Positions 35,453-40,746 of a stretch of 64,000 nt of DNA are shown here, piece by piece. This DNA comes from Oceanospirillales bacterium (GTDB taxonomy: Bacteria > Pseudomonadota > Gammaproteobacteria > Pseudomonadales > Balneatricaceae), in contig JAAEYW010000009.1 of the NCBI GenBank assembly GCA_018223185.1, forward strand, positions 62,001 to 126,000, given 5' to 3'. Numbering within the stretch: the stretch's first letter is position 1; each line of letters opens with the position of its first letter. The notes beneath the pieces are model-generated. The model did not search any database. It saw only the letters and a list, made by a program, of their open reading frames with translations, and was not told the origin of the DNA. Made by a program: the position numbers and the translations under genes.

Positions 35453-37207
35453 ATGTCTGGCAGCATACTAATAAAAAAGCAACAGGGCGTCGTGCCCAAT
35501 CTTGTTGATTACCAGAAAACCTATGCAGAATTTGACTGGCGTCAGGCTGAGGCCCAGCTGCAGGGTTTGCCAAAAGGTGGTTTGAATATCGCCTATGAAG
35601 CCGTTGATAGCCATCTTAAACAGGCCACTGCCGATAAACTCGCGCTTCGCTGGATCAGCAAAAACGATCAGATTCTGGATTTTACCTACCGTGACCTGGC
35701 TGAGCAGTCCAGTCGCTTCGCCAGTGTTTTAAAACAACTCAAGATAGCGCCCGGCGCTAAGGTTTACAGCCTGGCGGGTCGCTTGCCATCCCTGTATATC
35801 GGTGCCCTGGGCACATTAAAAGCAGGTTGTGTTTTTACCCCCCTGTTTTCTGCGTTCGGCCCTGAACCTATCCGCTCACGGATGGAAATCGGTGAAGCCA
35901 ATGTGCTGCTCACGACCAAAACGCTGTACCGTAAGAAACTGGCGAGCTGGTGGCGTGAACTGCCGCATATGCAGGCGGTATTGCTGATCGATGCTGACGC
36001 TGAGGAGTGTGAACCGGGTTGTTATTCATTGGATAGCTTAATGGCTGAAGGAGACCCCCATCTTCCCTGTGAGGAAACCCAGGCCGACCAGATGGCCCTG
36101 CTGCATTTTACCAGCGGCACCACCGGTAAACCTAAGGGGGTGGTGCATGTTCACCAGGCGGTGATGGTGCACAAGCAGTCAGCTTTGTACGCCCTGGACC
36201 TTCATCCTGATGATATCTACTGGTGTACGGCCGATCCCGGTTGGGTCACCGGCACCTCCTACGGCATTATTGCGCCGCTCTGTCTGGGTATGACCATGAT
36301 CGTTGATGAAGCGGAATTTGAAGCCGAACGCTGGTATCGCATTCTGCAGGATCAGCAGGTGAGTGTCTGGTATACAGCCCCCACCGCCATTCGCATGTTG
36401 ATGAAAGCTGGCACCGACATTCGCCAGCAATACGATTTGTCGGCGCTGCACTTTATCGCCAGCGTGGGGGAGCCGCTGAACCCGGAAGCCGTGGTCTGGG
36501 GGGATAAAGTCTTTGGTATTCCTTTCCACGATAACTGGTGGCAGACCGAAACCGGCGGCATCATGATCGCTAACCTGGCCAGTCAGGACGTGAAGCCAGG
36601 CTCTATGGGCCGTCCACTGCCGGGTATTCAGGCGGCCATCGTCACCCAGGGGGAAGGTCCGCGGGAAGAGATTACCGACCCCATGACGATCGGCGAGCTG
36701 GCCCTGAAGCCGGGCTGGCCATCAATGTTTCGTACCTATCTGCATCAGGAAGAAAAATATCAGAAGAGCTTTTCCAATGGTTGGTATCTCAGCGGTGATC
36801 TGGCGATGAAAGATACCGATGGATACTTCTGGTTTGTGGGGCGTGCCGATGACCTGATCAAATCTTCGGGCCATCTGATCGGTCCCTTTGAGGTGGAAAG
36901 TGCCCTGATGGAACATGAGGCGGTGGCCGAAGTCGGTGTGATCGGTAAGCCAGACCCTATAGCGGGCGAGATTGTGAAAGCTTTTGTGGCGCTGAAACCT
37001 GGAGTGGAGGCTGATGAGGCGTTACGCAAGCAGTTGCAGGGATTTGCCCGTAAACGCCTGGGAGCTGCTGTGGCGCCGAAAGAGATTGTCTTTCGTACAA
37101 ACCTTCCCAAAACCCGTAGTGGCAAGATCATGCGCCGCCTGTTAAAAGCCCGTGAGTTGGGCTTGCCGGAAGGTGATATTTCTACCCTGGAGAGTGATGA
37201 ACGATGA
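35453..37207 (+). CDS. acsA: AMP-forming acyl-CoA synthetase (acetate-CoA ligase-like)
   Basis: 584 residues. Adenylation motifs: [19 protein letters not shown] (P-loop), [10 protein letters not shown] (motif A5), [34 protein letters not shown] (hinge A8) and the catalytic Lys in TRSGKIMRR. Length and DNWWQTETG fit short Bacillus AcsA-type acetyl-CoA synthetases that turn acetate or a short acid plus CoA and ATP into acyl-CoA. It is the first gene of a five-gene overlapping operon with dehydrogenase E1/E2 and an acyl carrier protein. Start at 35453: GAGGGATGAGGA precedes the ATG. Confidence 0.92.
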
Positions 37208-38199
37208 GCAATAAACTCCATATCAACAGGGGCCACCTGCTGGCACAGTTAAAACAGATGGTGCGTATTCGCCGTTTTGAAGAGAAATGTGCCGAGCTTT
37301 ACAGCCAGCAAAAAATACGCGGTTTCCTGCATCTTTATATCGGTGAAGAAGCCATCGCAGTAGGGGCGATGGCCGCGCTGGATAAGGACGATCAGATTGT
37401 CGCTACCTACCGTGAACATGGTCATGCTCTCGCCCGGGGTCTGGCGATGGGGCCGGTGATGGCAGAGATGTATGGCAAAACTAACGGGTGCAGTCGTGGC
37501 CGTGGCGGTTCTATGCATCTGTTTGATAAGGCTAAACATTTTTTTGGGGGCAACGCCATTGTGGGAGGCGGACTGCCTCTGGCAACCGGGCTGGCCTTGG
37601 CCAATAAACAGCAGAAGCGTTCTTCGATTGCAGTGTGTTTTTTTGGCGAAGGGGCGGTGGCTGAAGGTGAGTTTCATGAAAGCCTGAATCTGGCGGCGCT
37701 CTGGCAACTGCCGGTGTTGTATATCTGCGAGAACAATCGCTACGCCATGGGGACAGCGTTGCAGTACTCCGAGTCAGAAATGAATATCTCAAAGAAAGCC
37801 GAAAGCTATGGCCTTCAGGTCAGTCAGATCGATGGTATGAATGTGGTGGATGTTGAAGCGGCGGTGCGTAAAGCCGCTGAAGTGGTGCGCGACAGCCAGC
37901 AGCCTTATCTGCTGGAGTGCCTGACCTATCGTTTTCGTGGTCATTCCAGTTTTGACGGCCAGCTGTACCGGGATAAAGCTGAGGTCAGCGAATGGGAGGA
38001 AAAAGGCCCCGTTAAACGGCTGGTCAGGTGGCTGACGGAATATAATCATTTTGCCGTGGCGGAAATGGAACAGATTGAACAGCAGGTCGAAGCGGAGATC
38101 GCCGAAGCGGTTGCTTTTGCCGAAGCCGGGGAATGGGAGCCAGTGGAAGACCTCTGCAAAGATGTTTATTCGCCAGCGCCTTCGGGAGGTGCCGCATGA
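37204..38199 (+). CDS. acoA: Thiamine-diphosphate-dependent dehydrogenase E1 alpha (acetoin/pyruvate type)
   Basis: 331 residues. E1-alpha signatures: [48 protein letters not shown] and the ThDP/Mg2+ motif [33 protein letters not shown], which has GEG where most have [14 protein letters not shown] closes the phosphorylation-loop region. It pairs with E1 beta to decarboxylate acetoin or a 2-oxoacid. The start overlaps the synthetase stop by 4 bases. Confidence 0.92.
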
Positions 38200-39188: not shown

Positions 39189-40501
39189 TGAGTAAACTAA
39201 TTGATGTCACCATGCCCTCTCTGGGCGCAGATATGACCGAGGGCACTCTGGTGGAATGGCAGGCCAGCCCCGGAGATGCTTTGAATAAAGGCGATATCAT
39301 CGCTTTGCTGGAAACCCAGAAAGGGCTGATTGAGATGGAGGTCTATCAGCCGGGGGTGATCACGGAATTGTTGTTGGAACCTGTGGTGACCGTGCCGGTG
39401 GGTTCGGTGATGGCCAGGATGAGCGTGGCAGATGTGGGGGTTCAGCCTGCAGCGCCAGAGCCTTCGCACCCCGCAGAACAGGCTGCTGCGATCAAAGTGC
39501 CAGTCATTAAAGCACCAGTCATTAAAGCGCCAGTCATTAAAGGCCCAGCCGTTTCGCCGGGTCAGCCGCATCAAGAGGGTGTACCTCAACCGGTCAGACC
39601 CCGGCAGGGAGTGCTGGCCTCGCCGGTGGTGAGAAAGCTCGCGGGCGCACAACAACTGGATCTCAGTCAGTTATCCGGGTCAGGGCCAGGGGGGGCGATA
39701 TTGCTCCGGGACCTTCCTGTGACTGCGCCTGAGGCTGAGAACAGAATTGATACAAGATCTGATATCACAGCTGATACAAAAGCTGATATCAAAGCTGATA
39801 CAAAAACGACGACCCGGACTGCCGCTTCCCCTGATACGGCTCTGGCCATGCGCTCAGCGATTGCCGCAGCGATGGAAAAATCCAAGCGTGAAATCCCACA
39901 TTATTACCTCTCTCTGGAGATGGATATCACTCAGGCGCAGCGCTGGCTGGCGGATTTTAATGCTGACCGGGGGCCGGAGGAGCGTATCTTGCTTCTGGCT
40001 CTGCTGTTAAAAGCTATTGCTCAATCCCTGCATAAATATCCCGCTTTAAATGGCTATTATCAGCAGCAAACATTCACCCCGAATAGCGCCGTGCATATCG
40101 GAAATGTAATCAGCTTAAGGGAAGGTGGCCTGGTGGTACCCGCTATTCACGATGTCGATCAGCTATCGGTTGAAGCGATTATGATCCGGTTGCGCGACCT
40201 GAGTGAGCGCAGCCGTCGTGGGGTGTTACGCAGTTCCGAGCTGATGGATGCCAGTGTTACTGTGAGCAATATGGGAGAGCGTGGCTCCGATCTGCTGTTT
40301 GGGGTTATCTACCCGCCTCAGGTGGCGATCATTGGTATTGGCAAGCCCCGTAAAACGATGCTGGTCAAAGGTGATCAGCCACGGGTTGCCGATGTTGTAA
40401 CGGTGAGTCTCGCTGCAGACCACCGGGTCAGCGATGGCATGACCGGGGCTAGGTTTTTAAATGCACTGGCGAATACATTACAGAAACCGGAAAAATTATG
40501 A
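39188..40501 (+). CDS. acoC: Dihydrolipoamide acyltransferase E2
   Basis: 437 residues. Lipoyl domain 1-78 with the lipoylated Lys in LLETQKGLIEMEV (usually ETDKA). A linker follows with three IKAPV-type repeats and an Asp/Thr/Lys-rich stretch. The peripheral-subunit-binding domain is near 140 (ASPVVRKLAGAQQLDLSQLSG), and the catalytic domain from about 215 carries SLAADHRVSDGMTGARFL with the active-site His. It transfers the acyl group to CoA in classical complexes. No dihydrolipoamide dehydrogenase gene follows, so E3 must come from elsewhere; an acyl carrier protein gene follows instead. Confidence 0.92.
   Translation: MSKLIDVTMPSLGADMTEGTLVEWQASPGDALNKGDIIALLETQKGLIEMEVYQPGVITELLLEPVVTVPVGSVMARMSVADVGVQPAAPEPSHPAEQAAAIKVPVIKAPVIKAPVIKGPAVSPGQPHQEGVPQPVRPRQGVLASPVVRKLAGAQQLDLSQLSGSGPGGAILLRDLPVTAPEAENRIDTRSDITADTKADIKADTKTTTRTAASPDTALAMRSAIAAAMEKSKREIPHYYLSLEMDITQAQRWLADFNADRGPEERILLLALLLKAIAQSLHKYPALNGYYQQQTFTPNSAVHIGNVISLREGGLVVPAIHDVDQLSVEAIMIRLRDLSERSRRGVLRSSELMDASVTVSNMGERGSDLLFGVIYPPQVAIIGIGKPRKTMLVKGDQPRVADVVTVSLAADHRVSDGMTGARFLNALANTLQKPEKL
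39500..39544 (+). repeat. 15-bp in-frame tandem repeat in E2 linker
   Basis: Three copies of ccagtcattaaag plus two variable bases encode a repeated PVIKA linker. Fifteen bases keep frame, so copy number can change linker length without breaking the protein. Confidence 0.85.
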
Positions 40502-40746
40502 ACAGAGATGAGCTAAGGCTGGCCGTGATTGAGGCATTACAGGTTGTGGCACCTGAAATTGAAGGCGATGAAATTGATGCCGATGAAGAGCTGCGGGAGG
40601 AGTGTGATCTCGACTCTATGGACTTCTTACATTTTCTGGAAGCCCTGAAACAATTGACAACGATCAACGTACCCGACGCCGACTATGACAAGGTGGATAC
40701 GCTGAACAAGCTGTTGGATTATCTTCAGCAAGCGGACGGTCAGTAG
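40498..40746 (+). CDS. Acyl carrier protein in 2-oxoacid dehydrogenase operon
   Basis: 82 residues, acidic, all-helical ACP fold. EECDLDSMDFLHFLEALKQL contains the DSM motif whose Ser accepts 4'-phosphopantetheine. The start overlaps the E2 stop by 4 bases, so it is translationally coupled to the dehydrogenase. It is not the fatty-acid-synthesis AcpP, which has DSLDTVE. A carrier for an acyl group made by this complex or by the synthetase is inferred. Confidence 0.88.
   Translation: MNRDELRLAVIEALQVVAPEIEGDEIDADEELREECDLDSMDFLHFLEALKQLTTINVPDADYDKVDTLNKLLDYLQQADGQ

What the first reader, a model, noticed from the sequence alone, without database searches (positions are those of the whole stretch)
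35453..40746. 2-oxoacid dehydrogenase operon with an acyl-CoA synthetase and its own acyl carrier protein, and no E3
Seen: five genes (AMP-forming synthetase, E1alpha, E1beta, E2, ACP) overlap by 1-4 bases, so their products are probably made in fixed ratio. The ACP carries a DSM phosphopantetheine site and is not the housekeeping type. Known: classical acetoin or pyruvate dehydrogenase operons end with E3 and pass acyl groups to CoA. Inference: the E2, whose lipoyl motif is ETQKG rather than ETDKA, may load the ACP directly, or the synthetase may charge it, making an acyl-ACP for an unknown product or signal.
Basis: partly seen in the sequence, partly recalled or inferred. Interest (0 to 1): 0.72.

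Follow-up and report, generated by a model that had tools for sequence, protein, structure and literature searches.

The report
Pyruvate dehydrogenase with its own ACP
A five-gene operon found in distantly related bacteria pairs a pyruvate-dehydrogenase-like complex and an acetate-activating enzyme with a private acyl carrier protein, which suggests, but does not yet prove, that acetyl groups are handed to a protein instead of to coenzyme A.

Summary
The operon is real. Five genes (AcsA-type acetate ligase, E1alpha, E1beta, E2, ACP) overlap by 1-4 bases at 35453-40746. It is a conserved module. The 80 best E2 relatives kept from a genome scan, eight phyla by record title, all have the ACP just behind E2, and 76 have the ligase. 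Among 398 Pseudomonadota, 14 of 14 operon-type E2s have it and 0 of the 16 next-best fetched. Among 198 Actinomycetota it is 7 of 8; the exception keeps two such ACPs elsewhere. These E2s form one clade on a long branch, carry a changed residue beside the catalytic Asp, and mostly lack the last residues of the C-terminal tip that joins E2 trimers. Ligase and E1 look acetyl- and pyruvate-specific. In proteobacterial relatives FNR-type boxes are enriched upstream; the window's copy has none. Best reading: an alternative pyruvate dehydrogenase whose E2 passes acetyl to the ACP, with the ligase linking acetyl-ACP to acetate. Transfer to ACP is inferred. 'No E3' is ordinary. Closest precedent: QncN/QncL/QncM and SclQ1-4.

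The parts
35453..37207 (+). AMP-forming acetate ligase (AcsA type), 584 aa; acetate pocket V265, T266, V338, W363, catalytic K558
37204..38199 (+). E1 alpha (ThDP), pyruvate dehydrogenase type, 331 aa
38196..39188 (+). E1 beta, 330 aa (start 38196 overlaps the E1alpha stop)
39188..40501 (+). E2, 437 aa: lipoyl, E3-binding and acyltransferase domains
39203..39421 (+). lipoyl domain of E2 (residues 6-78, motif ETQKG)
39611..39712 (+). E3-binding (peripheral subunit-binding) domain of E2 (residues 142-175)
40418..40438 (+). E2 active-site motif DHRVSDG (residues 411-417); a small polar residue before the catalytic Asp marks the clade
40478..40501 (+). C-terminus of E2, ends at the position of E. 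coli E2p L628, without the last two residues of the trimer-trimer knob
40498..40746 (+). dedicated acyl carrier protein, 82 aa
40615..40617 (+). codon of Ser40, expected phosphopantetheine site, invariant in 81 of 81 ACPs

Best explanation
This is an alternative pyruvate dehydrogenase module, acsA-E1alpha-E1beta-E2-ACP. E1 decarboxylates pyruvate and acetylates the lipoyl arm of E2. E2 then passes the acetyl group to the phosphopantetheine of the operon's own ACP instead of (or besides) CoA, giving acetyl-S-ACP. The dihydrolipoyl arm is reoxidised by a shared lipoamide dehydrogenase encoded elsewhere, recruited by the E3-binding domain. The AcsA-type ligase interconverts acetyl-ACP with acetate, AMP and ATP, so acetyl can leave as acetate with ATP gain, or acetate can be fed in. 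In many Alpha-, and some Gamma- and Betaproteobacteria, the module seems to belong to the low-oxygen (FNR/FixK-type) response. Shown: gene order, domains, conservation of the set, clade and motif changes, box enrichment in proteobacterial relatives. Inferred: acetyl cargo, E2-to-ACP transfer, ligase acting on ACP, direction, loss of the large E2 core.
For: The ACP follows E2 in 80 of 80 best relatives, 51 of 80 with an ATGA overlap, Ser40 invariant in 81 of 81; 0 of 28 canonical E2 loci (1.5 kb flanks) have such an ACP. Pseudomonadota sample: 14 of 14 against 0 of 16. Actinomycetota sample: 7 of 8. Operon E2s are one clade, 86 rows against 27 canonical ones from 12 of the genomes, 100/100 support, branch 1.29 + 0.36. 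Small polar residue before the catalytic Asp: 84 of 87 against 1 of 28, 13 of 14 against 1 of 16. E2 tail of at most 28 residues from the DHR Asp: 69 of 81 against 2 of 27; the C-terminal helix is the knob between trimers and CoA enters from inside the cube (PMC8421416, passages), so a shorter tail may open the acceptor side to an ACP. The only AcsA over the cut-off is the operon's in 12 of 12 genomes. Acetate pocket in 75-77 of 77. E1alpha matches human PDH at 246 bits against 149 for BCKD. FNR-type boxes with at most one mismatch upstream: 24 of 73 against 68 of 716 control ORFs; with stricter controls 17 of 45 against 48 of 301, p 0.002. PEP synthase in 15 of 80 loci. Precedent for E1/E2 loading an ACP: PMC6335953 passages.
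Against: No biochemistry: nothing excludes normal transfer to CoA, since the catalytic His, Asp and Ser are kept. The FNR-type signal is confined to Alpha- (18 of 29), Gamma- (4 of 11) and Betaproteobacteria (2 of 7); 0 of the other 26 loci have it. The window's own upstream 300 bases have none (best 3 mismatches), and the neighbours that I classified are not fermentation genes. Neighbour families each occur in a minority of the 80 loci. G692 has the four other genes without a linked ACP. LipB follows the ACP in 3 loci, which fits a lipoylation role as well. The tail difference is about two residues, and 11 of 81, 3 of 14 and 3 of 8 operon E2s have tails of 29 or more. E2 core and E2-ACP complex could not be modelled.
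Confidence: 0.47

Rival explanations
1. The complex makes acetyl-CoA as usual; the ACP is an assembly or regulatory subunit, sensing acyl-ACP as mitochondrial ACP does, and is not an acyl acceptor.
For: Catalytic residues of E2 are kept and an E3-binding domain is present. Some ACPs are known as structural subunits; mitochondrial complex I ACPs are among the nearest solved structures by sequence, though at weak scores.
Against: Ser40 is invariant in 81 of 81, so the arm matters; the acetate ligase is almost equally conserved in the operon (76 of 80).
Confidence: 0.2
2. The ligase alone charges the ACP with acetate for a downstream synthesis (fatty acid, PHA), while E1/E2 make acetyl-CoA in parallel.
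For: Ligase and ACP co-vary about as strongly as E2 and ACP (partial rank correlations 0.27 and 0.22, against 0.10 for E1beta). A PHA-synthase-like gene (below model cut-offs) lies in 3 of 80 loci; FabI, Pta and acetate kinase are annotated near the operon in Sulfitobacter.
Against: No synthase is constant in the neighbourhood; FabI, Pta and AckA of the Sulfitobacter type match none of the 80 loci. The ACP gene overlaps E2, not the ligase.
Confidence: 0.18
3. The ACP is a dedicated octanoyl donor for lipoylation of this E2.
For: LipB follows the ACP in L067, L070 and L075, all Thermodesulfobacteriota by title.
Against: Only 3 of 80 loci. Canonical E2s, which need the same lipoylation, had no such ACP nearby (0 of 28; 0 of 16). 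It does not explain the acetate ligase.
Confidence: 0.08
4. The operon works in the acetate-consuming direction: the ligase makes acetyl-ACP, which reaches central metabolism through E2 and CoA.
For: Same gene content; AcsA-type enzymes usually run towards acetyl-CoA (recalled).
Against: E1 would then be unnecessary; PEP synthase and other pyruvate genes are nearby in some loci.
Confidence: 0.07

Closest known systems
QncN/QncL/QncM (quinocarcin, name recalled) and SclQ1-4 (scleric acid): E1, lipoyl-E2 and ACP cassettes
   Same: ThDP E1 parts, a lipoyl acyltransferase E2 and a small separate ACP; the Qnc set is said to have been shown to form and attach a C2 glycolyl unit, the Scl set is proposed to (PMC6335953, passages and table)
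   Different: Those lie in Streptomyces biosynthetic clusters, are thought to use a ketose phosphate and feed a peptide. Here there is an acetate ligase, PDH-type E1, wide spread over phyla and no NRPS/PKS-type carrier in the genome. Relatedness of the E2s was not tested.
E1alpha/E1beta-type pyruvate dehydrogenase complex
   Same: E1 and E2 domain make-up, catalytic motif, E3-binding domain
   Different: Own ACP and acetate ligase, separate E2 clade, changed residue at the catalytic Asp, shorter C-terminal tip in most
AcsA-type AMP-forming acetate-CoA ligase (NF003313)
   Same: 918.8 bits against a cut-off of 729, acetate pocket kept
   Different: In 12 of 12 genomes the only member over the cut-off is the one in this operon; 11 of the 12 have further Acs-like matches below the cut-off
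Acetoin dehydrogenase operon
   Same: E1alpha, E1beta and a lipoyl E2
   Different: The NCBIfam acetoin E2 model matches only residues 6-97; E1alpha passes the PDH model

Membership tests
Pyruvate dehydrogenase complex (E1alpha/beta type) | ThDP E1 alpha and beta of PDH type | tested here: met
   TIGR03182 445 against 393.85, NF006667 395.3 against 321; best solved structures are human PDH E1alpha
Pyruvate dehydrogenase complex (E1alpha/beta type) | E2 with lipoyl, subunit-binding and CAT-like domains and DHRxxDG | tested here: met
Pyruvate dehydrogenase complex (E1alpha/beta type) | E3 available | tested here: met
   not in the operon, but a lipoamide dehydrogenase over the cut-off elsewhere in the genome
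Pyruvate dehydrogenase complex (E1alpha/beta type) | E2 belongs to known PDH E2 families | tested here: not met
   below the cut-off of all 11 NCBIfam models that it matches; separate clade
Pyruvate dehydrogenase complex (E1alpha/beta type) | E2 trimers joined by a hydrophobic C-terminal knob | tested here: inconclusive
   tail about two residues shorter in most; assembly not modelled
Pyruvate dehydrogenase complex (E1alpha/beta type) | acetyl transferred to CoA | not testable with these tools
   needs enzyme assay
QncN/QncL/QncM-type ACP-loading cassette | E1, lipoyl E2 and separate ACP encoded together | tested here: met
QncN/QncL/QncM-type ACP-loading cassette | part of an NRPS/PKS biosynthetic cluster | tested here: not met
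   only two PP-binding matches in the genome
QncN/QncL/QncM-type ACP-loading cassette | E2 loads the ACP | not testable with these tools
   needs enzyme assay
QncN/QncL/QncM-type ACP-loading cassette | common ancestry of the E2s | not tested
   no QncL or SclQ4 sequence was at hand
AcsA acetate-CoA ligase | family model and acetate pocket | tested here: met
AcsA acetate-CoA ligase | CoA as acceptor | not testable with these tools
   needs enzyme assay with CoA and holo-ACP
Acetoin dehydrogenase | acetoin-type E2 model over its whole length | tested here: not met
   NF011457 54.6 against a cut-off of 307, lipoyl part only

The most novel reading that the evidence does not exclude
A CoA-independent pyruvate dehydrogenase: pyruvate goes to acetyl-S-ACP on a dedicated carrier protein, and the AMP-forming ligase runs backwards on acetyl-ACP to make acetate and ATP. 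It would be a transferable energy module, low-oxygen controlled in proteobacteria, that leaves the CoA pool untouched and needs an E2 with an opened acceptor side, perhaps a free trimer.
Probability: 0.27. Interest if true: 0.82.

Novelty: new variant of a known kind. Interest (0 to 1): 0.62.

Why it matters
CoA is the textbook acceptor of 2-oxoacid dehydrogenases in central metabolism; the only ACP-loading cases I met are the Qnc and Scl cassettes of natural-product clusters. A conserved module with its own ACP in several phyla would mean that a central acetyl node can run on a protein carrier. Every step can be tested with five small proteins. If it only makes acetyl-CoA, what an ACP does inside a PDH operon is still an open question.

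Tried and rejected
Antibiotic or signal synthesis: rejected for the window's genome, because its only PP-binding matches are a better one on contig 5 and this one and no synthase is constant in the neighbourhood. Acetoin dehydrogenase: rejected on E2 and E1alpha models. Missing E3 as a special feature: rejected. FNR control of the window's own copy: looked for, not found within 300 bases; one exact match lies inside the ACP gene at 40654 and is probably chance. FNR control as a general feature: rejected on recheck, since the boxes occur only in Alpha-, Gamma- and Betaproteobacteria among the 73 loci; the first control set consisted of mechanically called ORFs, some surely not genes, so repeats the test with controls whose upstream DNA is free of other long ORFs, and the effect is smaller but still there. 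Comparison of CoA-contact residues: from OdhA contacts in PMC10415282 (passages) and an alignment with a mycobacterial homologue, Tyr314 of OdhA matches Ala410 here; too few contacts are known to me to call the CoA site lost, so no weight is put on it. Papers: none of the listings of ten searches showed a paper that describes this operon (open-licence library; two of the ten were about E2 structure). The 2012 paper on QncN/QncL/QncM is not held and was seen only as cited in PMC6335953.

Rows dropped: from the E2 tree I left out L119 (partial), L124 and L125 (operon E2s already in the set) and L041 (truncated frame). The FNR tests used 73 of 80 loci, those with a ligase and 300 bases upstream, and 45 of these in the stricter test. 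The co-variation test used 76 of 81.
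Full report
The window holds five same-strand genes at 35453-40746 that overlap by 4, 4, 1 and 4 bases. Domain and family searches give an AcsA-type acetate-CoA ligase, E1alpha and E1beta of pyruvate dehydrogenase type, an E2 with one lipoyl domain, an E3-binding domain and the acyltransferase domain, and an 82-residue ACP. The E2 is below the cut-off of all 11 NCBIfam models that it matches, and the ACP below all 8. The genome (4.6 Mb, 43 contigs) has two PP-binding matches, a stronger one on contig 5, presumably the housekeeping ACP, and this one. 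It has three other E2 matches, so this is an extra complex.

'No E3' is not unusual. The E2 keeps the E3-binding domain, and a lipoamide dehydrogenase over the model's cut-off exists in the own genome and in all 11 related genomes examined. A search with the own genome's enzyme found none in the DNA held for the 80 related loci, up to 10 kb on each side.

The ACP belongs to the E2. In 274 genomes of the class, 7 (the own one included) had an E2 match at E<=1e-60 and all 7 had the ACP next to it. All 80 have the ACP behind E2, 51 of them with exactly the 4-base overlap, two about 0.2 kb from the end of the called E2 frame. 76 of 80 have the ligase, two of these cut by a contig end; of the other four, three contigs end inside the operon and in the fourth (L092) a PEP synthase gene lies upstream of E1 and the contig ends 0.3 kb before it. 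In 23 loci E1alpha and E1beta cluster as one long protein. By record title the 80 fall into eight phyla, four of them with a single metagenome-assembled genome each. Because that scan favours E2s like the query, I repeated it on samples. Of 398 Pseudomonadota genomes, 14 had an E2 above 400 bits, with a gap down to below 300 bits; 14 of 14 had the ACP, and 0 of the 16 next-best fetched did. Of 198 Actinomycetota genomes, 8 had an operon-type E2, 7 with the ACP. The exception, G692, has ligase, E1 and E2 without an adjoining ACP, yet has two ACPs of the operon type elsewhere, one behind the broken remnant of a second E2. As a negative control, 0 of 28 canonical E2 loci had such an ACP within their 1.5 kb flanks.

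The E2s are a family of their own. In a tree of 86 operon E2s and 27 canonical ones the two sets are separated with 100/100 support, by 1.29 + 0.36 changes per column across the drawn root. Mycobacteria fall in one supported clade with Betaproteobacteria (99/97), and Bacteroidota in one with Thermodesulfobacteriota (98/86), so the module has probably moved between phyla. Pairwise distances of ligase, E1beta, E2 and ACP correlate (rank correlations 0.51-0.69, 0 of 200 permutations as high), as expected for a unit; with the others held constant the ACP goes with the ligase (0.27) and E2 (0.22) more than with E1beta (0.10). That is weak evidence that the ACP touches both enzymes.

Two changes in E2 are worth testing. 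The residue before the catalytic Asp is Ser, Thr, Cys or Asn in 84 of 87 operon E2s and in 1 of 28 canonical ones; in the second sample 13 of 14 and 1 of 16. The chain ends at most 28 residues from the Asp of DHR in 69 of 81 operon E2s and in 2 of 27 canonical ones; aligned through the own AceF, the window's E2 stops at the place of E. coli L628 and lacks V629 and M630. The difference is small, and 11 of 81, 3 of 14 and 3 of 8 operon E2s have 29 or more. A structural paper says that the short C-terminal helix is the knob that joins E2 trimers, that the lipoyl arm enters the active site from outside the cube and that CoA enters from inside (PMC8421416, passages). A near-constant Arg (25 of 27 canonical; R441 in E. 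coli by my count on the alignment) lies on the helix of Q443 and E447, which that paper names in the contact; it is Leu in 76 of 86 operon E2s. I infer that the large core may be lost or weakened and the acceptor side open to a protein. This was not modelled; the structure machine was busy twice.

The cargo is probably acetyl. The four acetate-pocket residues known from Salmonella Acs (numbers recalled, positions read from the alignment) are kept in 75 to 77 of 77 ligases. In 12 of 12 genomes this ligase is the only one over the AcsA cut-off; 11 of them have other Acs-like matches below it, so it looks dedicated. E1alpha is closest among solved structures to human PDH.

The setting in proteobacterial relatives suggests oxygen limitation. 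An FNR/FixK-type box (TTGAY-N4-RTCAA) lies exactly within 300 bases upstream of the ligase in 12 of 73 loci against 22 of 716 other ORFs of the same loci, and with at most one mismatch in 24 of 73 against 68 of 716 (Fisher p 2e-5 and 3e-7). With ORFs restricted to those with open upstream DNA it is 10 of 45 against 17 of 301 and 17 of 45 against 48 of 301 (p 0.0008 and 0.0016); loci are not independent. All 24 are Alpha- (18 of 29), Gamma- (4 of 11) or Betaproteobacteria (2 of 7); the other 26 loci have none. The window's own copy has none. A PEP synthase gene lies in 15 of 80 loci and directly follows the ACP in L016 and L017, two of the nearest relatives. Also seen: a D-lactate-dehydrogenase-like gene (3 loci, below model cut-offs), a formate/nitrite-transporter family gene (4), a molybdopterin oxidoreductase (5, formate dehydrogenase by look only) and an ADH_N-domain dehydrogenase (5). 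In a Sulfitobacter plasmid the operon stands with genes annotated as phosphate acetyltransferase, acetate kinase, DUF2267 and universal stress protein. In three Thermodesulfobacteriota LipB follows the ACP.

Mechanism, most likely: pyruvate to acetyl-lipoyl-E2 by E1, then to acetyl-S-ACP by E2, with a shared lipoamide dehydrogenase; the ligase links acetyl-ACP with acetate and ATP. Only the parts and their conservation are shown. That an E1/E2 pair can serve an ACP is on record for QncN/QncL/QncM and proposed for SclQ1-4 (PMC6335953, passages and table), so the chemistry has a precedent; none of my ten paper searches listed its use in central metabolism. Rivals are normal acetyl-CoA formation with a structural ACP, charging of the ACP by the ligase alone, and a lipoylation role. 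The first assay under the next steps would decide between them.

Noticed in passing
L229, L238, L239 (genome G692): Only exception seen to E2-ACP linkage: ligase-E1-E2 without ACP, plus two unlinked operon-type ACPs, one behind a broken E2 remnant and one beside a gene that looks like CBS repeats by eye.
   Followed up: partly
L067, L070, L075: LipB (octanoyltransferase) follows the ACP in three Thermodesulfobacteriota.
   Followed up: partly
window 39500-39840: The E2 linkers contain short tandem repeats (KAPVI units and DTKADIKADTK-like units), seen by eye.
   Followed up: no
window 40654-40667: An exact FNR-type box lies inside the ACP gene; probably chance.
   Followed up: no
L047, L071, L081, L083: In Flavobacterium a trypsin/PDZ (DegP-like) protease gene sits between the ligase and E1alpha, and a small zinc-ribbon gene before E1beta.
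   Followed up: no
L020, L040, L055, L058, L027, L073, L086: In some Alphaproteobacteria an FtsH-type gene (L040, and its relative in L020) or an unnamed 410-416 aa protein (L055, L058) follows the ACP, or a PHA-synthase-like gene lies nearby (L027, L073, L086).
   Followed up: partly
eleven of the 80 loci, for example L076:2442-4481: Genes that match all or part of a fused phosphoribosyltransferase and erythromycin-esterase-like protein recur near the operon; function in these islands unknown.
   Followed up: no
window 33673-35237: Upstream of the operon lie a Vmh-like metallo-hydrolase (below its cut-off) and a DsbA-like protein; near the operon of the 80 relatives the first matched in 1 locus and the second in none.
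   Followed up: partly
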